Assembly (NCBI GenBank): GCA_020435205.1
Contig: JAGQZY010000016.1
Span: 1-41,639 of the forward strand
Source of the DNA: Bdellovibrionales bacterium
GTDB taxonomy: Bacteria > Bdellovibrionota > Bdellovibrionia > Bdellovibrionales > JAGQZY01
Direction: 5' to 3'
DNA length: 41,639 bases
A program made the translations under genes and the position numbers. A model generated the notes under the pieces. That model did no database searches, was not told the origin of the DNA, and worked only from the letters and a program-made list of their open reading frames with translations. Shown in pieces: positions 14,658 to 23,248 of the stretch (position 1 is the first letter of the stretch; every line of letters starts with the position of its first letter).

Positions 14658-15140
14658 TTAGGAGCTTTTTCCTTTTTTCATTTTATCCATGGCTCGCTTA
14701 ATCTGTTTTTCCAAGAGAATCTCTCGGCCGATGCGATAGATGAGTGCTTTTTCCTCAAATCCATCGGAGCCAATTTCCTTAGGCTTTGCAAAAAAGTCCC
14801 TTTGCAGGCGACTCTCTTTGCGAATGGAAACTTTGGTGCGAGTGTCAGATTCATTTCTGAGGATATTCACATTGATTTGGTACTGCAAACCACTAGGAAG
14901 TTTTTCAGTTTCTTCGTGGGGAGCTTTATAGCGATTGCGTCCTGTGATAAAGAGCGTCTGTAAAAATCCTGTGTCCATGTTATTAACGTTCATAGGGTAA
15001 TTGAGCATGGCTTGTTGGGTGGCTCTCCACACAACTTCATATTTAGCGTTAAAAACTTGATGGTATTCTCGGACCTCTGCTTTTTGGCTAGAAGCGCAGG
15101 CGCTGAAAATTAAAAATAGGGGAAGCAATGCGTTTTTCAC
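14658..15140 (-). CDS. Small lipoprotein, BamC/NlpB-like fold possible
   Basis: A 160-residue lipoprotein: the signal ends IFSAC with Cys15 as the lipid site. The mature sequence begins with a strand-helix unit (YHQVFNAKYEVVWRATQQAMLNY) followed by NNMDTGFLQTLFITGR and alternating strands (GLQYQINVNILR, TRTKVSIRKES). This resembles the domain of BamC and other lipoproteins that compare a folded pair of strands; the assignment is weak. The C-terminal 30 residues are very basic. The start codon is GTG 15140: an in-frame TAA is just upstream and there is no other candidate. There is no ribosome binding site; instead a perfect TATAAT box ends eight bases before the GTG, predicting a leaderless transcript. 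Confidence 0.7.
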   Translation of the reverse strand: MKNALLPLFLIFSACASSQKAEVREYHQVFNAKYEVVWRATQQAMLNYPMNVNNMDTGFLQTLFITGRNRYKAPHEETEKLPSGLQYQINVNILRNESDTRTKVSIRKESRLQRDFFAKPKEIGSDGFEEKALIYRIGREILLEKQIKRAMDKMKKGKSS

Positions 15141-15148
15141 TAATAACC

Positions 15149-15177
15149 ATTATAGGCATAGGATGCTTCACTAGAAA
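15149..15177 (-). promoter_or_regulatory. Candidate promoter of the BamC-like lipoprotein gene, leaderless
   Basis: On the minus strand a perfect -10 box TATAAT (15149-15154) lies eight bases before the GTG start at 15140. The -35 region at 17 bases spacing (TTTCTA, 15172-15177) is weak. Initiation seven bases after the -10 box would leave a leader of about two bases. Confidence 0.45.
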
Positions 15178-15224
15178 AGGATTAGACTAAGGTCTTAATG
15201 ACCTATGTCAGGAGGAGAGTATTT

Positions 15225-16904
15225 TTAAAACTGTTTGCGAACACCCAGTTGAATAATTTGGTACTGGGTTTTATTGCCCGATGTCGGGTTGTTGTAAGAC
15301 GTGTCAGAAAAGTCACCAAAAATAGACCAACTCTCGTATTTGCGGGCGGGGTCGATACGCCAGCCGAGATCAGTACCTATTTCACGGTTTTCGAAGCGGA
15401 AGCCCAAATCTTGACCGGTGGGACCATAGCGTCCGCCAAACCAAAAGCGGTCATTCTCAAAAAGGGCTTTAGCTTGAAAGCCCACCAGTGAATTAAAACC
15501 AAAAAGTTTATTAGAGGCGAACATAGTAATATAATAACCGCCAACTCCAAATTTAAATGGCACTCCACTGACCGAAATAGGTGTTGTGTAAAGAAGCCAC
15601 TGCTCACCTCTAAATATATAAGACTTTTCAAAGACACCATTTTCGTTGGCAGCGATGGGAATCACGGCCGAAAAGTTACCCTGAACTTCTAGATCAATAA
15701 ATATAGGAGCAAACATACCCACGCCAAGGGCAACGCCGGATTGTTGAAAGTCTTCAGTTAAAAAGCTTTGCTTAAGGGTTATGGTATGGCCATTGATGAT
15801 TCCATCGAAGGCAATGTTTTGAAAGAAAACCTCAGTGGTTTGGCCTGGGGTGGAAGCGAGCCAGCGATTGAGATTCTTGTTGGGCGAGTTCATATTTTCG
15901 TCAAAAACATAATATTTAGAAAGCCTTTGCAAACGCTCTTCATCACTTTCATAGGGTGACATGCCGTCGGGAGACCGCGTCGCTAAAAGGGATTTAGGCA
16001 ATTGAGTGATTTTTCGTTTGGCATGAGCCGAAGGAATCCAGCCCACGTGATGGAGTAGATTTCCGTCTTTGTCTTTAATCTGATAGCCTATTTTATAGAA
16101 GAGAGTGTTTTTTTGTTTGTGATTGACCACATCTTTTAAAGACACGATCGTGGCATCAAAAAGGTAGGCCTTTGTATGAAGGTCAATAAAATCAGTGCAT
16201 AGGTTTTCATTGAGGCCACAATCCTTCCAGGTCCATGCTCCTGGTCGAGAAAAAACAGGAATTGAGTTACGCCCGTAGGGAACAGTGATATCCATTTCGA
16301 CAGGTAGATCGTGGGAGGTGATGGTTTCATAGTTGCGCCAATCATAGTATACATGTAGGTTTTGTTGGTCTTGCTCGCGTGTAGATATTCTTTTCCAAAC
16401 ACCTTGGTTATCTCGATCCATTCTCATTTTATGAACAAATTGAGATGGGGTATCGATAACTTTGATCAACTCACCAGGTTTAAGGTGCATGATGGCCTCT
16501 TCAGACTGTGAGGCGGCTGGGTATATGGGGGCATTGCCATTGCCTGTAAATGAGCGAAGCTCAAGAAAATAGACAATTTTTTGGGGAAGCTCGCGGTTGC
16601 GGACGACTCCAATTTTGTCGGGAGTTTCCACGGGAGCGCTGGCTGGGCTACGAATATCGAGTTTCTTAATTTCCTTATTGGGCTCGCCCACTTCTTTTTT
16701 GTAGAGCTCTTCTAGCTTGATTTGTTTGGTGGAGCTGTCGGTCAGATGATTAATATTTTCTTTATCATCAGCGGAATCAACCTCAACATCTTCTACGAAA
16801 ATCGTACCAAAGTGTACGCTGTCTTCGGAAAAAGCAACGCTGGCACTCAGCAGATGGAGTGCAAGGAATATATAAATAACATTAAACCGCTTTAACAAAT
16901 TCAT
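15225..16904 (-). CDS. Outer-membrane beta-barrel with periplasmic SH3-like domains
   Basis: A 559-residue exported protein of no named family. Signal peptide about 1-26 (LLSASVAFSEDS); the frame is open upstream to 17186 but that part lacks coding character and a signal. Residues about 30-105 are an acidic, disordered linker. Residues about 108-180 (VYFLELRSF...LKPGELIKVID...VWKRIS) and about 205-305 (VPYGRNSIPVFSRPG...AYLFDATIVSL...GNLLHHVGWIPSAHAK) look like two SH3-type beta domains, often used for cell-wall binding. From about 365 to the end, alternating amphipathic strands and the terminal LGVRKQF with a final Phe indicate an outer-membrane barrel. The likely job is to link outer membrane and peptidoglycan; this is inferred. 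The ribosome binding site is weak. Confidence 0.65.
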   Translation of the reverse strand: MNLLKRFNVIYIFLALHLLSASVAFSEDSVHFGTIFVEDVEVDSADDKENINHLTDSSTKQIKLEELYKKEVGEPNKEIKKLDIRSPASAPVETPDKIGVVRNRELPQKIVYFLELRSFTGNGNAPIYPAASQSEEAIMHLKPGELIKVIDTPSQFVHKMRMDRDNQGVWKRISTREQDQQNLHVYYDWRNYETITSHDLPVEMDITVPYGRNSIPVFSRPGAWTWKDCGLNENLCTDFIDLHTKAYLFDATIVSLKDVVNHKQKNTLFYKIGYQIKDKDGNLLHHVGWIPSAHAKRKITQLPKSLLATRSPDGMSPYESDEERLQRLSKYYVFDENMNSPNKNLNRWLASTPGQTTEVFFQNIAFDGIINGHTITLKQSFLTEDFQQSGVALGVGMFAPIFIDLEVQGNFSAVIPIAANENGVFEKSYIFRGEQWLLYTTPISVSGVPFKFGVGGYYITMFASNKLFGFNSLVGFQAKALFENDRFWFGGRYGPTGQDLGFRFENREIGTDLGWRIDPARKYESWSIFGDFSDTSYNNPTSGNKTQYQIIQLGVRKQF

Positions 16905-17089
16905 ATCTGGTATACCTATGATATCTATCGGTGGTCTTGATTTGAAAAATGATGGAGATTTAAGGTAGATGGGCATTTTTGGACCATGGGCGGAAGGATT
17001 AAAGGCTAGAGAACTTGCTCGACTCGTAGACGTTCCACTAGAGTAACATAATCTTTGTACTTTTTGCGCTAGACCTTGGGCATTGGAAA

Positions 17090-17119
17090 GTGACACTTGG
17101 AAATTTGAGTTGCTAAAAT
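17090..17119 (+). promoter_or_regulatory. Extended -10 promoter of the YdbL-like gene, leaderless
   Basis: GTGACA (17090-17095, five of six to TTGACA), 18 bases, then TGcTAAAAT, an extended -10 with TAAAAT at 17114-17119. The start site seven bases downstream is base 17126, the A of the ATG. No Shine-Dalgarno sequence precedes the gene. Confidence 0.6.
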
Positions 17120-17125
17120 AAGACA

Positions 17126-17677
17126 ATGAAAAGTTCAACATTAACAATGGTCCTGATTCTTTTTTTTGGTGCGGCTTGCTCCTCAAGTGGTACGGCTTTG
17201 CAAGCTTCTGTCGCTAAAGCTCAGGGGTCAGAAAAAAAGAAAGCGGACGCCAAGCCTGCGGCAAAAAAAACAAAGAACCAAAAAGCGGAGAACAAGAAAT
17301 CAGATCAGAGCCAGAGAATTGGTTGGGATGAAAGTGCTTTGGAATTACCGCAATCTCGGCGTTTACAAAAAAAGATGGCGGCCCGTTTTATGGATTACGA
17401 AAAGTATCGCAATAAAAAATACATTGGTGAGAGTGTTGATGGTATTTTAAGAGTGCGCACGACAAAAGGACTCTCTAAGAAAGAAGCGCAAAAAGTGAAG
17501 AACTTAGTTAAAGCAGAAAATAAAGATCGCGAAGCTTTGTATAAAATTATTGTCAAAGCCGAGGGCTATGATCAAAATATGGAAAAAGTTTTACGGGAGA
17601 AGTTTTTTAGATCTTATCAAGAATGGGCTCCAAAAGGGACCTACTTTTTTATTGATGGCCGTTGGAATATTAAATAG
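17126..17677 (+). CDS. YdbL-like (DUF1318) lipoprotein
   Basis: A 183-residue lipoprotein; the signal ends FFGAAC with Cys18 as lipid site. Residues about 32-63 are a Lys/Ala-rich, disordered linker. The C-terminal domain has the YdbL/DUF1318 pattern: GESVDGILRV, then a helix with VKAENKDREALYKIIVKAEG, and finally APKGTYFFIDGRW, matching the family's pattern of a 'G-x-dG-l' opening, asparagine/arginine helix and 'pG-x-y...-G-W' end. In Escherichia coli YdbL is encoded with YdbH and YnbE, which take part in lipid transport between membranes; neither is nearby here. Instead a beta-barrel gene follows after 12 bases with its own ribosome binding site. The ATG appears to be the first base of the transcript. 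Confidence 0.72.
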   Translation: MKSSTLTMVLILFFGAACSSSGTALQASVAKAQGSEKKKADAKPAAKKTKNQKAENKKSDQSQRIGWDESALELPQSRRLQKKMAARFMDYEKYRNKKYIGESVDGILRVRTTKGLSKKEAQKVKNLVKAENKDREALYKIIVKAEGYDQNMEKVLREKFFRSYQEWAPKGTYFFIDGRWNIK

Positions 17678-17689
17678 CAAGGAGTGCAA

Positions 17690-18373
17690 ATGCTGGCGAG
17701 AATCGCTCTGGTATTCATTACGTTTTCTTTTTCTCTCACAGCCTATGGGGCTCGTTACGGAAGCACGGATTTAGCCTTTCGAGGAATGGCTGGTTATGCT
17801 GGTTTTGGGGTGGCTGAATTTACTGTACTCAACCCTCGAGCGGATTTCCGAATGGATCAGGGTACCTATATTTACCTCGGTGGCGAAAAGGAAATTGGGC
17901 ACACCGGTTTATTTATTACAATCAACCTCAATTTTATGGAGAGTTCGGGGCAAAGTCTTTATGACTACACGGCTTTGGGTGGAACTCAATATCAAAACAA
18001 TCCGGGCAGTCAGATTGATTTTGATTCTAGTCATTACCAAATAGGGATGGGATTAAAATTTAAGCTTTTTCCAACCTCCTGGTTTCGCCCTTATGGTGAA
18101 GGCGGTGGTCTGTTTGGTTTTCATGAAGTGAGGCACAACGCCAGGGCTTCTGATCTGACAGTGACAGATGGCAATCATAAAACTAAAGACACCTTGAGCG
18201 GTTTTGGCTATTACATGGAAGCTGGTTTAGAAGTGGATTTCTCAGAGATTTGGGGTGTGCGTGCGGCGGCTCGCTATCAGCTCACTGAAACTCGGCCTTT
18301 TGAAACTCTAGGCAATGAAAAAATAAAGTATGAGACTCGCATATTCTTTTTCGGGATTGGTCGAAAATTTTAA
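17690..18373 (+). CDS. Outer-membrane beta-barrel protein
   Basis: A 227-residue exported protein with a signal peptide (about 1-20, ending TAYGA) and alternating amphipathic strands through to a C-terminal phenylalanine (FFFGIGRKF), as in small eight- to ten-strand outer-membrane barrels. Strands such as YIYLGGEKEIGHTGLFITINLNF, YQIGMGLKFKLFP and GYYMEAGLEVDF are separated by turns and a polar loop (about 95-108, GGTQYQNNPGSQ). It resembles OmpA/OmpW-size barrels but no family motif is clear. Start is ATG 17690, five bases after AAGGAG; a GTG at 17684 overlaps that site and is rejected. It shares the message with the YdbL-like lipoprotein and ends at a strong terminator. Confidence 0.75.
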   Translation: MLARIALVFITFSFSLTAYGARYGSTDLAFRGMAGYAGFGVAEFTVLNPRADFRMDQGTYIYLGGEKEIGHTGLFITINLNFMESSGQSLYDYTALGGTQYQNNPGSQIDFDSSHYQIGMGLKFKLFPTSWFRPYGEGGGLFGFHEVRHNARASDLTVTDGNHKTKDTLSGFGYYMEAGLEVDFSEIWGVRAAARYQLTETRPFETLGNEKIKYETRIFFFGIGRKF

Positions 18374-18391
18374 GAGGAACTCTATTGTAAT

Positions 18392-18425
18392 AAAAAAAGC
18401 CGATGCATTCATCGGCTTTTTTTTT
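18392..18425. terminator. Bidirectional Rho-independent terminator
   Basis: GCCGATG (18399-18405) and CATCGGC (18410-18416) form a perfect stem with a four-base loop, flanked by seven A upstream and nine T downstream. The A and T tracts let it act on both strands, ending the barrel gene on the plus strand and the repeat protein gene on the minus strand. Confidence 0.93.
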
Positions 18426-18436
18426 GTTTTGCAAGA

Positions 18437-19045
18437 CTATTTACGGACCATCTTGGAAGTGAGTCCCCCAGTTTGATATTCAAATTGATCGTCGATCCCC
18501 TCAGTGAGTTGGATGCTGCGACTGCCACCCTTCTCATTGCACTGTCCTTGCTGGCAAGTGAAAGGCCAAGGGGAGTCTGTGGTGCAATGATAATTGAAGC
18601 TGACAACCTCGCCGCTAGCATTGGACTCAACTTCAGACACTTGGTAGTCATCGCAGAAGTAACTATCTGTCGATAAGGGGAGGTAGATTCCCTCTTGTAG
18701 GGAAAACTGTGGTGGGTGCTCAGAGCAGACCTTTCCAGCCATAAGATCTTCTTGACTGGCAATATGTTTGCTCAGGTCCTTGCAAACGACGTCAAACATC
18801 CCGTCCTCTCGTTTTTGTACAGAAAGAATATCATAGGCTGGAACGGAGGTGAGCTTTGGACAAATGTTATCAAGTTTAATATCCAAATCAGAAGCCGACT
18901 CAATGGAACCGTCTTTACAATTCACTTGGTAGCTGCCATCAGCCAGCAAGGTGATGACGGCGGCGTCGTTAATGCTCAGGCTCGAAAAATCAGCTAAGGC
19001 GGGTTGAAGCAAAAAGGTTGTCAGTGCAGATATTATAAATTTCAT
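18437..19045 (-). CDS. Secreted cysteine-rich protein with two 28-residue repeats
   Basis: A 202-residue exported protein of no recognised family. Signal peptide about 1-18 (ending PALA). Two ungapped 28-residue repeats are visible at 35-62 and 80-107: each begins with an acidic residue or Ala then Asp-Gly, has an aromatic at position 5, Val at 7, Cys-Lys-Asp at 9-11, Ala-Ser at 17-18 and a final Cys; 11 positions are identical. The two Cys of each unit are 19 residues apart, suggesting one disulfide per repeat. More cysteines follow in YFCDDYQV, NYHCTT and TCQQGQCN. Start ATG 19045 has a strong GGGGGA ribosome binding site. A function cannot be assigned. Confidence 0.7.
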   Translation of the reverse strand: MKFIISALTTFLLQPALADFSSLSINDAAVITLLADGSYQVNCKDGSIESASDLDIKLDNICPKLTSVPAYDILSVQKREDGMFDVVCKDLSKHIASQEDLMAGKVCSEHPPQFSLQEGIYLPLSTDSYFCDDYQVSEVESNASGEVVSFNYHCTTDSPWPFTCQQGQCNEKGGSRSIQLTEGIDDQFEYQTGGLTSKMVRK

Positions 19046-19133
19046 ATTTCCCCCTGGAAAAAGTTGAAATCCAAGCTTAGCGCAAACCTCTTGGCTGTCT
19101 AGGAAAAGTTACATTATGTCACTAAATGTTAGC

Positions 19134-19161
19134 GAGGCCTGAGGTTTTGCCTCTTTTTTTT
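19134..19161 (+). terminator. Possible weak terminator or leader hairpin
   Basis: GAGGC (19134-19138) pairs with GCCTC (19149-19153), followed by eight T. The stem is short. It lies between divergent genes with no plus-strand gene feeding it, so it would act only on a transcript starting upstream, for example as attenuation of the operon at 19310. Confidence 0.3.
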
Positions 19162-19309
19162 GCAGAGTGAGGGGCTTGCAGGAAGACTCTATGGAGGTTA
19201 AAGCCCCTTCAGCCGGAGCCTAGATTTTGATTTAAAAAGGCGGCCTGTAAATGCTTCCAAGAGATTGACACTCTGCCTCGGGGAGGGGAAAAGGGGCTGT
19301 GGAGGGAGT

Positions 19310-20308
19310 ATGGGGAAACGGATAAAAATCATTATTGTCAGTCTTTTTCTGGCAAGTTGCGGGCCAAGAGACGAGGCCGCGAGTGGCAGCTCGGGTCCAA
19401 GCTTTATTCAGCTCAAGACAGGGGAAGTCCTAGAGGTCAGTGCTGAAGGGGAGCAGCTGACACCAGAAAACTGCAAGCGCAAAGATGGTAGCCAAGATAT
19501 TTGGAAAACCATTCGGCTTTTTAAAGAAAATCAAAACTTATACTCGAAAGCCCAAGACAATCGCCTAAAAGTTATTTTAGGACGGGCTCGCAACTGTTTG
19601 CAGGTGTCTACGAAAGTTCCTGTGGAATATGTTTTACAAAATGAAGACGGAAAAAGTTTTGCAAACACCGGGGTGAAGGTTCTCGTCACTAAACTTCAGG
19701 TGATGAATATCGATGACCTCTTAAAAAAATCGGATTTGATGACAGAGTTTGCTGACGGCATGGGAGTTTCTGTTAGTGAGCTAGTGGAGTTTTTAAAGGA
19801 CGAGGGTTTAAGAGGTCAAGTTTCGGTGACCTATGTGCAGTCGGCGAATCCAGACCAGCCACAGCAGCCCTCAAATGGCAAAATTCAAGTCATAGATCTT
19901 GCAGGAAATGAAGGACAAGTGATCCGTCCGGATCTTTGTGGCACCCAGATTTGGCAAAGTGTGCGCATCTTTCAAGACATTCAAGATCCAGTCATTGAAG
20001 CCATCACTGATAAAAAGTTGAAGTTATTTCTGTCCCAAGGAGACAAGGTCTGTCTCGCTATGGGCGAACCTTTTTTCTTTGAGGTAAAGAATCAAGATGG
20101 GAAGTTTGAAAAAGTGGAAGGCAGTGATTATCGTCTAGTGAAAGTGATTATCCGCAACAAAGATGACTTTCTTGGGGATCCCATGCTCAGAGATTATGTC
20201 AGTCGCGATATGAATTTAAGTCTGGCAGAATTTGAATCTTACCTCCAAGGTATGAGCCGAGATCAAGTCAACCTGCTTTATTTCAATCCAGTAGGAGATC
20301 AATTATGA
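19310..20308 (+). CDS. Lipoprotein with a tandemly duplicated domain
   Basis: A 332-residue lipoprotein; the signal ends LFLASC with Cys17. The mature protein consists of two copies of one domain, about 32-166 and 181-327, joined by a Pro/Gln linker. Matching landmarks are IWKTIRLF/IWQSVRIF, LKVILGRARNCL/LKLFLSQGDKVCL, VEYVLQNEDGK/FFEVKNQDGK, NIDDLL/NKDDFL and VSVSELVEFL/LSLAEFESYL. The core pattern (tryptophan-x-(T/S)-(I/V)-R, then a Gly-Asp type turn, then an E/F...DG hairpin) has some likeness to ASCH domains, but this is a weak guess. Start ATG 19310 follows GGAGGGAG; the upstream in-frame extension has no signal peptide. It overlaps the next gene by four bases and heads a three-gene operon. 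Confidence 0.75.
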   Translation: MGKRIKIIIVSLFLASCGPRDEAASGSSGPSFIQLKTGEVLEVSAEGEQLTPENCKRKDGSQDIWKTIRLFKENQNLYSKAQDNRLKVILGRARNCLQVSTKVPVEYVLQNEDGKSFANTGVKVLVTKLQVMNIDDLLKKSDLMTEFADGMGVSVSELVEFLKDEGLRGQVSVTYVQSANPDQPQQPSNGKIQVIDLAGNEGQVIRPDLCGTQIWQSVRIFQDIQDPVIEAITDKKLKLFLSQGDKVCLAMGEPFFFEVKNQDGKFEKVEGSDYRLVKVIIRNKDDFLGDPMLRDYVSRDMNLSLAEFESYLQGMSRDQVNLLYFNPVGDQL

Positions 20309-21378
20309 AGAAGCCTTGGATCCTTATCGGAATATTTTTCCTCAGTGTTTCTTGCACAACCACACCTTACCAACCGGCTCCTGACAGTGTTTCGATCATG
20401 GCCTACAACGTAGAGAATCTCTTTGATAATCAAGATGATCCTGGCAAAGATGATGAAACTTATATGTCAAAAAAATCAAAGCAAAGTCCTCGGCACCGCA
20501 TGACTTGTAGTGGGATGTCCAATCCCTATTATCGTCAGCAGTGCCAAGAGTTGGATTGGTCGGATAGCAAGATCCAGCGTAAGCTAAAAAGAATTGCCCA
20601 CGTCATTTTGCAGGTGAAAAAGGGATTAGGTCCCGATATTGTTATCCTTGAAGAAGTAGAAAATGAAAAGATTTTGGAAAAACTTCGTAAAAGCTATTTG
20701 CAAAAAGCTGTCTATCAAAAGGGAATCCTCCTGGAAGGACCTGACAAGCGAGGGATCGACGTGGCCATGCTTTCGCGGTATCCCTTGGTCGGAAAGCCAA
20801 TCCTGCACCCCGTCCAATGGATTCCTGATCCTAAAAAAAATAAATCGGCTCGTCCCACCCGTGGGATTTTACAGGCTCAGTTTCGATTGCCCACTGGCGA
20901 TGTTTTGACTGTGTTTGGAGTGCATTTTCCATCTCAAGGCAATCCCGTAGGTTACCGTTGGGCAGCTATCGAAACCTTGCGTAAGGCTAAGCAGGCCCTG
21001 CCTGAAGATAGTCTTGTTGTGGTCGGTGGAGATTTTAATATTACGGCAGAAGAAGAAGGGGAGAAGGGTCTTTTTAAAAGTCTTGCCAATGAATTTTATA
21101 TTTCTCATTTTGAAGGCTGCAGTCAATGCGAAGGAACTCACAATTACCGTGGGAGCTGGTCCTTTCTTGATGCTCTTTTATTTAGCAAAAATTTGAAAAC
21201 TCAAGGGCGATGGAAGTATGTTCCTGAAAGCATTCGCGTGGCCAATAAAAGTATTTATCAGCTCAACAATTGGGGGGCTCCCGCCCGCTTTCAAGAAGGT
21301 ATTTCGCAAGTGGGGGTTTCTGATCACTTTCCGATTGTTGCTGAGATAGTGCCTGTAAAGGCGAAGGTGGCCCAATGA
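20305..21378 (+). CDS. Endonuclease/exonuclease/phosphatase family lipoprotein
   Basis: A 357-residue member of the EEP (DNase I-like) superfamily exported as a lipoprotein: signal ending LSVSC with Cys17. The catalytic motifs are all present: MAYNVENLFD (Asn for metal positioning), VILEEVEN (metal-binding Glu), RGIDVAMLSRYP, VFGVHFPSQ (His), GGDFNI (Asp/Asn) and the final VSDHFPI (Asp-His catalytic pair). Such proteins cleave DNA or phosphodiester/phosphomonoester bonds; a surface nuclease is the simplest reading. A cysteine pair in GCSQCEG (about residue 272) and one near HRMTCSGM may form disulfides. It overlaps both its neighbours by four bases, so it is translated together with the duplicated-domain lipoprotein and a beta-barrel. 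Confidence 0.9.
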   Translation: MKKPWILIGIFFLSVSCTTTPYQPAPDSVSIMAYNVENLFDNQDDPGKDDETYMSKKSKQSPRHRMTCSGMSNPYYRQQCQELDWSDSKIQRKLKRIAHVILQVKKGLGPDIVILEEVENEKILEKLRKSYLQKAVYQKGILLEGPDKRGIDVAMLSRYPLVGKPILHPVQWIPDPKKNKSARPTRGILQAQFRLPTGDVLTVFGVHFPSQGNPVGYRWAAIETLRKAKQALPEDSLVVVGGDFNITAEEEGEKGLFKSLANEFYISHFEGCSQCEGTHNYRGSWSFLDALLFSKNLKTQGRWKYVPESIRVANKSIYQLNNWGAPARFQEGISQVGVSDHFPIVAEIVPVKAKVAQ

Positions 21379-22304
21379 AAAAGTGGTTCCTTTCTTTTTT
21401 GATTTTGGCTTTTACAGGATCCGCCTCGGCGAGCATGTTTGTTCAAGATAGCCTCAATCTTCGCAAAACGCCTTGGAGTTTCACTGGCTTTTCCATAGCC
21501 AGTTTGGAGCCTGATCAATTGAGTGATGGCGGTGGTCGTCTGCAATCCTACAACTATGCCAGCATCAATTACCGGCTTTCCATGCGCGATCGGGTGTCGC
21601 TGAGACTTCCTTTTAACTATAATACTGCTGGCTATGACCGCTTTAACGGTGAGTGTGTGCAAAATCAAGAGTGGGCCGTGGGGGACCCTATCATTGGCTA
21701 TACCAACTACAACTTGGTTTTGCTACCCGGTGAGATCGACACCTTTTGGAATGGGCGAATTTACCTTCCTGTGAGCAACACCTCTCAGGATCAGGGGCGT
21801 ATTTTGCGAGCCCGTAACCGATTCATCTTTTCAAGAATGCTCACACAGAAATTAGAAATCGCCTATCGCGATACCTTTAACTATTATCACCAGGCTAAAA
21901 CCACTTATGTGGGTAAACATGCAGACGACCAATGCAATTTGGTAGATAACGACAATCCAAGCAATACTAAGAAATACGATTGGGAGCAATTGGTAGCCCT
22001 TTGGTACAGTCTTGGCAAAAACTTTGGTATTAGTTGGCAAGGTGGTATGCGCACAGAAATGCGCAATGCCTCCAACACCATTGAAACCAGCCGTCAGGCT
22101 TTTGGTCGGCTAAGGGAAATTTCAGCTTTTATGGGTCCGGCCATCCGCTTTAGTGTCAGCGATGATATCAATATGATCTTAACCTACTATGATGTGGCTG
22201 AATTTAGTGGGTATAGGGAAGATCGCCAGGATTTACTGTCTGATTTGGGAACTTTTAAAAGCAAAAATACGGAAATTTCCCTATTAACTTTCTTCCGTTT
22301 CTAG
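21375..22304 (+). CDS. Outer-membrane beta-barrel protein
   Basis: A 309-residue exported protein: signal peptide about 1-20 (ending GSASA), then alternating amphipathic strands to a terminal aromatic (LLTFFRF). Examples are YNYASINYRLSMRDRVSLRLPF, IDTFWNGRIYLPV and QKLEIAYRDTFNYYHQAK; loops of 15-25 polar residues separate them. There are about twelve strands, fitting a transport-type barrel, but no family signature is recognised. It is the last gene of an operon in which each stop overlaps the next start by four bases, so its amount is tied to the nuclease-fold lipoprotein. It might import products of that enzyme or hold it at the surface; both are inference. Confidence 0.75.
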   Translation: MKKWFLSFLILAFTGSASASMFVQDSLNLRKTPWSFTGFSIASLEPDQLSDGGGRLQSYNYASINYRLSMRDRVSLRLPFNYNTAGYDRFNGECVQNQEWAVGDPIIGYTNYNLVLLPGEIDTFWNGRIYLPVSNTSQDQGRILRARNRFIFSRMLTQKLEIAYRDTFNYYHQAKTTYVGKHADDQCNLVDNDNPSNTKKYDWEQLVALWYSLGKNFGISWQGGMRTEMRNASNTIETSRQAFGRLREISAFMGPAIRFSVSDDINMILTYYDVAEFSGYREDRQDLLSDLGTFKSKNTEISLLTFFRF

Positions 22305-22351
22305 CTGAACTTTGCTAAATCCCACTGATCTTTTGCGAAAAATAGGAGATC

Positions 22352-23248
22352 ATGGGAAACGAAGTTCTCGCTTATTTTTATGCCTTTGGCTCAGTGGCCA
22401 CTTTTTCAGTGGCAGCCCTAGTTTACACCCATTTTTCTCTAAAAATTTCAGCCCTATGGATGACCATGTTCAAGGCGGCGGTTTCGGTTTGGTGTTCGGT
22501 GCCCTTGCTCTTGATTGTGGGAAGCCCCCTTTATTTTCCGGTCGCTGTGAGCTGGCCATTTTTACTCAGTGGAGCCCTTGGCTTGGCTTTGGGGGACTTC
22601 TTTTTGTTGAGTGCCTACCGGCGTATTGGGCCGGCGCGAACCCTGATTCTTTTTGGCTTTGAGCCTTTAGTGGTTGGTGCCTTTTCCTATTTTGTTTGGG
22701 AAGAAGAGCTGCAGAGCATGCAATTTTTTGCGGTGATCTTTTTTGTCGGTTGTCTGTTTCTATTTAGTTACGAGCGCTTTCGCGCGAACCGCCAGTGGGA
22801 AATCAAAGGTTTGCTTTTTGCCTTGGCTGGCGTGCTACTCGATGCGGTTGGCGTTCTTTTATCTCGCTACGGATTTGACCATACCCCTCAGGTGTCGGGG
22901 ATTGAGGGGCATTTTATGAGATCGGTGGCGGCCCTGGTTGTTTTACTTATAGTTTCCCCCTATTTTCGGGTTCCTTTTTATGAACCTTTCAAGAAGTTGG
23001 TTTTTAAGGAAAGATTTATGGTCTCTATGGCCAGTGTGATGGGGACATTTTTGTCTTTGGTTCTTTACATGCAGGCGATCAAAATTGGCAAGATGGCAAC
23101 AGTCACCTCCATTGTGCTCACTGACCCCATGATCTCGACCACTCTGGAAAGTTTTTGGAAAAGGCAATGGCCCAGTCGCTATATGTGGGCGGCCCTGGTC
23201 TGCTTCGCCTTTGCTATGCTCTGTTTGTTTTACCCTCAATTTGCGTAA
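22352..23248 (+). CDS. EamA/DMT family membrane transporter
   Basis: A 298-residue inner-membrane protein with about ten predicted transmembrane helices in two EamA halves (about 6-135 and 150-297). Typical elements are ALGDFFLLSAYRRIGPARTLILFGFEPLVVGAFSYFVWEEEL closing the first half and YMQAIKIGKMATVTSIVLTDPM in the second. These drug/metabolite superfamily carriers export amino acids, metabolites or drugs; the substrate is not deducible. Start ATG 22352 with AGGAG (22344-22348). It is separated from the barrel gene upstream by 47 bases and from the Nfu gene downstream by 71 bases, so it may be its own unit. Confidence 0.88.
   Translation: MGNEVLAYFYAFGSVATFSVAALVYTHFSLKISALWMTMFKAAVSVWCSVPLLLIVGSPLYFPVAVSWPFLLSGALGLALGDFFLLSAYRRIGPARTLILFGFEPLVVGAFSYFVWEEELQSMQFFAVIFFVGCLFLFSYERFRANRQWEIKGLLFALAGVLLDAVGVLLSRYGFDHTPQVSGIEGHFMRSVAALVVLLIVSPYFRVPFYEPFKKLVFKERFMVSMASVMGTFLSLVLYMQAIKIGKMATVTSIVLTDPMISTTLESFWKRQWPSRYMWAALVCFAFAMLCLFYPQFA

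What the first reader, a model, noticed from the sequence alone, without database searches (positions are those of the whole stretch)
19310..22304. Coupled surface operon: duplicated-domain lipoprotein, nuclease-fold lipoprotein, beta-barrel
Three envelope genes overlap by four bases each: an unknown two-domain lipoprotein, an EEP-superfamily lipoprotein with full catalytic motifs, and an outer-membrane barrel. This looks like a dedicated surface module that breaks down nucleic acid or another phosphodiester and perhaps takes up the product. I know of no named system with this composition.
Basis: partly seen in the sequence, partly recalled or inferred. Interest (0 to 1): 0.66.

Follow-up and report, generated by a model that had tools for sequence, protein, structure and literature searches.

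The report
Surface nuclease–channel module of Bdellovibrio relatives
A Bdellovibrio-related bacterium carries a conserved set of three outer-membrane proteins (a nuclease-type enzyme, a channel with a positively charged lumen, and a lipoprotein built from nucleic-acid-type ASCH domains) that probably work together to break down and take up nucleic acid outside the cell.

Summary
Three genes (19310-20308, 20305-21378, 21375-22304, +) overlap by four bases each. The unknown "two-domain lipoprotein" is now identified: its domains have the ASCH fold. AlphaFold gives pLDDT 93.7, the six best PDB fold matches are all ASCH-type proteins, and a relative passes Pfam's ASCH cut-off. YqfB's catalytic residues are missing, so binding is likelier than catalysis. 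The middle protein is an exported EEP enzyme whose active-site motifs are invariant in 41 relatives. The third is a 12-stranded barrel with conserved arginines that appear to line its lumen.

The grouping is real. Of 55 strongly matching barrels in Bdellovibrionota, 54 lie next to an EEP gene and the 55th next to an ASCH lipoprotein. Fifty of 56 EEP+barrel loci also carry a third lipoprotein: the ASCH type in eight, an unrelated family in the rest. Both types share an N-terminal tag, C-x-P-(K/R)-D, found only on lipoproteins of this module among those examined.

Best reading: a surface module that cuts nucleic acid and admits anionic products. Co-occurrence and folds are computed results; substrate, uptake and complex formation are inferred. 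I found no named system with this composition. It bears on how Bdellovibrio takes up intact prey nucleotides.

The parts
19310..20308 (+). ASCH-repeat lipoprotein gene (332 aa), first gene of the overlapping trio
   Evidence: ORF and translation; relatives with 2-4 copies of the domain
19358..19372 (+). Lipidated cysteine and N-terminal tag C-G-P-R-D, the C-x-P-(K/R)-D motif of this module's lipoproteins
   Evidence: 37 of 166 lipoprotein-like ORFs in the neighbourhoods carry the motif and all 37 belong to the module; profile comparison aligns the two lipoprotein types over signal peptide and tag
19421..19852 (+). ASCH-fold domain 1, with two conserved cysteines
   Evidence: AlphaFold pLDDT 93.7, pTM 0.88; Foldseek top six all ASCH-type; profile matches YqfB 1te7 at E 0.0038
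19877..20299 (+). ASCH-fold domain 2
   Evidence: Same domain family as domain 1; not folded separately
20305..21378 (+). Exported EEP-superfamily enzyme (357 aa), probably a lipoprotein
   Evidence: PF19580 113.5 bits; all EEP active-site residues and four of its cysteines invariant or nearly so in the family
21375..22304 (+). 12-stranded outer-membrane barrel (309 aa) with conserved arginines apparently facing the lumen; ends in Phe
   Evidence: AlphaFold pLDDT 88.1; Foldseek matches FapF, a COG4313 channel, NanC, Tsx and OmpG; conserved K/R columns

Best explanation
A three-component outer-membrane module for harvesting nucleic acid. The EEP lipoprotein hydrolyses phosphodiesters of nucleic acid outside the inner membrane. 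The tandem-ASCH lipoprotein binds nucleic acid or (modified) nucleotides and holds substrate near the enzyme. The 12-stranded barrel, with its positively charged lumen, lets the short anionic products pass the outer membrane. The shared C-x-P-(K/R)-D tag on the variable lipoprotein may dock it to the barrel or the EEP protein, or sort it to the same place. Shown by computation: gene overlap, conserved co-occurrence, folds, intact EEP motifs, missing YqfB catalytic residues, conserved basic columns, tag specificity. Inferred: nucleic acid as substrate, uptake direction, physical complex, surface exposure, role of the tag.
For: Linkage: 54 of 55 strong barrels in the phylum adjoin an EEP gene, in both divergent and overlapping co-directional layouts. 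ASCH fold of the lipoprotein; characterised ASCH proteins act on RNA or nucleosides: ZmASCH cuts single-stranded RNA (PMC5615036), YqfB hydrolyses N4-acetylcytidine (PMC6972931). EEP active-site motifs invariant and an S1/P1 nuclease gene 9 bases upstream of the EEP relative in Pseudomonas GM4FR, conserved in Pantoea Ap-967. Seven conserved K/R columns in the barrel against three D/E, with R73, R77, R128, R145 and R147 on the lumenal face by strand alternation; two relatives hit KdgM, an acidic-oligosaccharide porin (E 4.6e-4, below curated significance). Two separate lipoprotein families share position and tag.
Against: EEP enzymes also include sphingomyelinases and sugar phosphatases, and those are among the distant PDB matches, so the fold does not fix the substrate. 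The window's ASCH lipoprotein is acidic (pI 4.9) and relatives range up to 9.1, so there is no uniformly basic nucleic-acid surface. The nearest barrel folds are FapF, a protein-secretion pore, and a COG4313 channel thought to pass hydrophobic molecules. The most widespread third lipoprotein is not ASCH-like. A minority of loci lack the third lipoprotein, and many EEP paralogues stand without a barrel.
Confidence: 0.5

Rival explanations
1. The EEP protein acts on a non-nucleic phosphodiester or phosphomonoester (phospholipid, sphingolipid, phosphorylated sugar or envelope polymer), and the barrel takes up or exports that product.
For: Profile matches in PDB include mannosyl-6-phosphatase and sphingomyelinases at E about 1e-5. 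The COG4313 relative SphA is a sphingosine uptake channel and the family is linked to hydrophobic substrates (PMC4493636).
Against: The ASCH domains have no known lipid or sugar role. The lumenal arginines do not fit a hydrophobic substrate. S1/P1 nuclease neighbour in the outgroup. The best PDB matches are tyrosyl-DNA phosphodiesterases.
Confidence: 0.25
2. The barrel is an export or display pore. It moves the tagged lipoprotein (or its N-terminal segment) to the surface, and the EEP enzyme serves defence, biofilm or prey digestion rather than feeding through this channel.
For: Closest solved fold is FapF, a polypeptide secretion pore. A lipoprotein+barrel pair without EEP exists at G085:C100 and at G048:C59. 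The tag is shared by two lipoprotein types that differ elsewhere.
Against: FapF similarity is modest (TM about 0.53, rmsd 6-7 A) and shared with NanC, Tsx and OmpG uptake channels. In all but a few loci the EEP gene, not the lipoprotein, is the constant neighbour of the barrel. The basic lumen suits small anions.
Confidence: 0.15
3. Three independent envelope genes kept together for expression reasons only, with no joint substrate.
For: No experimental data link the products. Many EEP paralogues of the same family stand alone.
Against: Linkage persists through inversion of the barrel (6 co-directional, 50 divergent), across several families and into a second branch of the phylum. Strong barrels almost never occur without EEP.
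Confidence: 0.1

Closest known systems
EEP secreted nucleases (Pfam PF19580 Exo_endo_phos_3; ExeM/NucH, NF033681)
   Same: Same superfamily, exported, complete active-site motifs
   Different: ExeM/NucH model scores 19.5 bits against a 300-bit cut-off; here a short lipoprotein paired with a barrel
ASCH proteins (E. coli YqfB; Zymomonas ZmASCH)
   Same: Fold and strand/helix order; profile match to YqfB
   Different: Exported tandem repeats in a lipoprotein, a conserved cysteine pair per domain, no YqfB catalytic triad
COG4313 / FapF 12-stranded channels
   Same: Strand number and overall fold
   Different: No Pfam match; conserved lumenal arginines; N-terminal plug not resolved (pLDDT under 50 for residues 11-28)
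NanC / KdgM acidic-oligosaccharide porins
   Same: 12 strands and a basic lumen, as expected for anionic substrates
   Different: Below Pfam significance for the window protein; partner genes differ
SUS-like nutrient-uptake modules of Bacteroidota (from general knowledge)
   Same: Logic of surface hydrolase plus binding lipoprotein plus outer-membrane transporter
   Different: No TonB-dependent SusC-type barrel and no SusD; a small 12-strand barrel instead
Known exported nucleases of B. bacteriovorus (Bd0934, Bd1244, Bd1431, Bd1934, Bd3507; PMC3593177)
   Same: Exported nucleases in the same phylum
   Different: Those are endonuclease I or SNase types; the two Exo_endo_phos entries in that list are cytoplasmic ExoIII enzymes, and no exported EEP lipoprotein is listed

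Membership tests
EEP superfamily (PF19580) | Pfam score above curated cut-off | tested here: met
   113.5 bits vs 27
EEP superfamily (PF19580) | Complete active-site residues (Asn, Glu, His, GDFN, Asp, SDH) | tested here: met
   Invariant in 41 sequences
EEP superfamily (PF19580) | Nuclease activity | not testable with these tools
   Needs enzyme assay
ExeM/NucH extracellular nucleases (NF033681) | Model score above cut-off 300 | tested here: not met
   19.5 bits
ASCH domain (PF04266) | ASCH fold | tested here: met
   AlphaFold pLDDT 93.7; top six Foldseek matches ASCH-type, YqfB E 2.5e-4, prob 1.00; domain 1 only
ASCH domain (PF04266) | Pfam score above curated cut-off | tested here: inconclusive
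   Met by relative L038 (28.2 vs 21.2 bits) but not by the window protein itself
YqfB-type ac4C amidohydrolase | Lys21-Thr24-Glu74 triad plus Arg26 | tested here: not met
   Triad not conserved in any of 24 domains; required in YqfB (PMC6972931)
COG4313/FapF channels | 12-stranded barrel of that fold | tested here: met
   Foldseek E 2e-8 (FapF) and 7e-7 (4rl8), TM 0.5-0.6
COG4313/FapF channels | Sequence-family membership | tested here: not met
   No Pfam match for the window barrel; PDB profile search best E 0.34, OMPLA
COG4313/FapF channels | N-terminal segment inside the barrel | tested here: inconclusive
   Low confidence at residues 11-28
SUS-like uptake system | TonB-dependent SusC-type barrel with SusD partner | tested here: not met
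   Barrel is 12-stranded, 309 aa; no Pfam SusD in the lipoprotein

The most novel reading that the evidence does not exclude
A phylum-specific outer-membrane machine in which a constant nuclease+channel pair accepts interchangeable lipoproteins through a short N-terminal docking tag (C-x-P-K/R-D). In the window's lineage the interchangeable part is an exported tandem-ASCH nucleotide or RNA reader, and the machine is the route by which Bdellovibrio-type bacteria take up intact nucleotides.
Probability: 0.25. Interest if true: 0.82.

Novelty: new variant of a known kind. Interest (0 to 1): 0.64.

Why it matters
Bdellovibrio is known to use and take up intact nucleoside monophosphates from prey (Rittenberg & Langley 1975; Ruby et al. 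1985, both as cited in PMC7529429). The two Bdellovibrio papers on exported nucleases consulted here do not describe this module, and no outer-membrane route is proposed in what I read. The module gives a defined, deletable gene set for testing that question. It also puts ASCH domains outside the cytoplasm, and provides a candidate lipoprotein tag that can be tested by mutation.

Tried and rejected
Direct family searches of the lipoprotein gave no family above cut-off; its relatives appeared only after building a domain profile. Single-protein PDB search of the EEP found nothing; the alignment was needed. Sequence search for the barrel fold in PDB gave nothing significant. YqfB-like amidohydrolase activity was rejected on missing residues. 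ExeM/NucH membership was rejected. A common origin of the globular parts of the two lipoprotein types was tested and not supported: only signal peptide and tag align. The barrel was looked for next to EEP genes outside Bdellovibrionota and not found in the loci retrieved. No barrel match in plasmids.

Full report
What is in the window. Three genes lie head to tail with ATGA overlaps: lipoprotein 19310-20308, EEP protein 20305-21378, barrel 21375-22304.

The lipoprotein. Pfam and NCBIfam gave no family above cut-off. Splitting it into two domains and building a profile with the sister species' three-domain version (L036) found relatives with 2-4 copies. One relative (L038, four domains) passes Pfam's ASCH cut-off (28.2 vs 21.2 bits). 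AlphaFold on domain 1 with 24 domain sequences gave pLDDT 93.7 and pTM 0.88. The six best PDB matches are all ASCH-type: YqfB twice, ZmASCH, PF0470, EF3133 and a Lactobacillus ASCH domain; the next match drops to probability 0.07. An independent profile search puts YqfB 1te7 first (E 0.0038). The YqfB triad Lys21-Thr24-Glu74 is not conserved in any domain (residues from PMC6972931). Two cysteines are almost invariant per domain, which fits an exported, disulfide-bonded protein. A binding module is therefore more likely than an amidohydrolase. The domain's nucleic-acid affinity is not shown, and the window protein is acidic.

The EEP protein. PF19580 at 113.5 bits. Asn35, Glu119, His207, Asp243, Asn245, Asp289, Asp340 and His341 are invariant in 41 sequences. 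Profile relatives of known structure are TDP2, a mannosyl-6-phosphatase and sphingomyelinases, so the fold alone does not fix the substrate. In Pseudomonas GM4FR an S1/P1 nuclease gene ends 9 bases before the EEP relative, and Pantoea Ap-967 has the same neighbour.

The barrel. AlphaFold: pLDDT 88.1, 12 main strands. Fold matches: FapF, the COG4313 channel 4rl8, then NanC, Tsx and OmpG. Seven alignment columns are at least 82% Lys/Arg (window residues 67, 73, 77, 128, 145, 147, 199); by strand alternation R73, R77, R128, R145 and R147 face the lumen. This resembles anion channels and differs from the electronegative, hydrophobic-type COG4313 channel of known structure (PMC4493636). The lumen assignment is from the strand pattern, not from measured coordinates.

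Conservation of the grouping. In the phylum sample 55 barrels match at E 1e-50 or better. Fifty-four adjoin an EEP gene; the other (G085:C100) overlaps an ASCH lipoprotein. Weaker barrel matches mostly lie elsewhere and are treated as other members of the wider barrel family. Among 56 distinct EEP+barrel loci, 6 are co-directional and 50 divergent. All six co-directional ones carry the ASCH lipoprotein directly upstream of EEP, nearly all with 1-4 base overlaps: the window, G001, G019, G023, G077, G087, three genera and two families. On the EEP tree the paired genes cluster strongly (8 label changes against 33 in shuffles). These loci are related by descent, so the counts are not independent events; the inversion and the lineages without a barrel show that the linkage is kept rather than merely inherited in one frozen block.

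A third gene with a tag. One search found a third lipoprotein in 49 of the 56 loci, and adds one (L042). Eight are ASCH type. The rest belong to a different family (C/F) with no Pfam match, usually convergent to EEP. Profile comparison aligns the two types only over signal peptide and the C-x-P-(K/R)-D motif. In these neighbourhoods 37 of 166 lipoprotein-like ORFs have the motif and all 37 are module lipoproteins. The motif was first noticed in this same set, so a test on whole genomes is still needed. The stand-alone ASCH lipoprotein of the own genome (G000:C133) lacks the tag.

How it most likely works. Nucleic acid outside the cell (prey or environmental) is held by the ASCH lipoprotein, cut by the EEP lipoprotein, and short anionic products pass the basic barrel. 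This would suit organisms that take up intact nucleoside monophosphates (Rittenberg & Langley 1975; Ruby et al. 1985, seen as citations in PMC7529429). I give this 0.5. Whether the window's organism is a predator is unknown.

Known or new. Each part belongs to a known superfamily. I found no paper describing the combination: the published HD100 nuclease list has no exported EEP lipoprotein (PMC3593177), and only three open-access papers hold both 'ASCH domain' and 'lipoprotein', none about such a protein by title and abstract. Subscription papers and preprints were not searched.

Noticed in passing
G000:C133 (L119:884-1792, -): A second, stand-alone lipoprotein with two ASCH-like domains in the same genome, without the C-x-P-(K/R)-D tag.
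   Followed up: partly
L034:5655-6737 and L035:5910-7112: Two further EEP paralogues of the own genome, without barrel partners.
   Followed up: partly
L120:2186-4161; L248:5871-8109: Lipoprotein and barrel directly paired without an EEP gene: ASCH type overlapping the barrel in L120, C/F type in L248.
   Followed up: partly
L077, L064, L129, L080 and about 40 others: A family of about 310-400 aa lipoproteins of unknown fold, tagged C-x-P-(K/R)-D, next to the EEP/barrel pair in Bdellovibrio and relatives.
   Followed up: partly
L126:4945-7026: S1/P1 nuclease gene ending 9 bases before an EEP relative in Pseudomonas GM4FR; the same order in Pantoea Ap-967 (L124).
   Followed up: yes
window 14658-23248 and L036: The neighbourhood (OmpA-like barrel 17684-18373, DUF1318 protein 17126-17677, 15225-17186 protein, EamA transporter 22352-23248) is syntenic with the sister species.
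   Followed up: no
L240:6467-7012: In G285 the barrel gene next to an intact EEP gene is interrupted by stop codons.
   Followed up: no
L247 (G029:C12): A distant EEP and a distant barrel are divergent neighbours about 1.1 kb apart, perhaps an old version of the pair.
   Followed up: no
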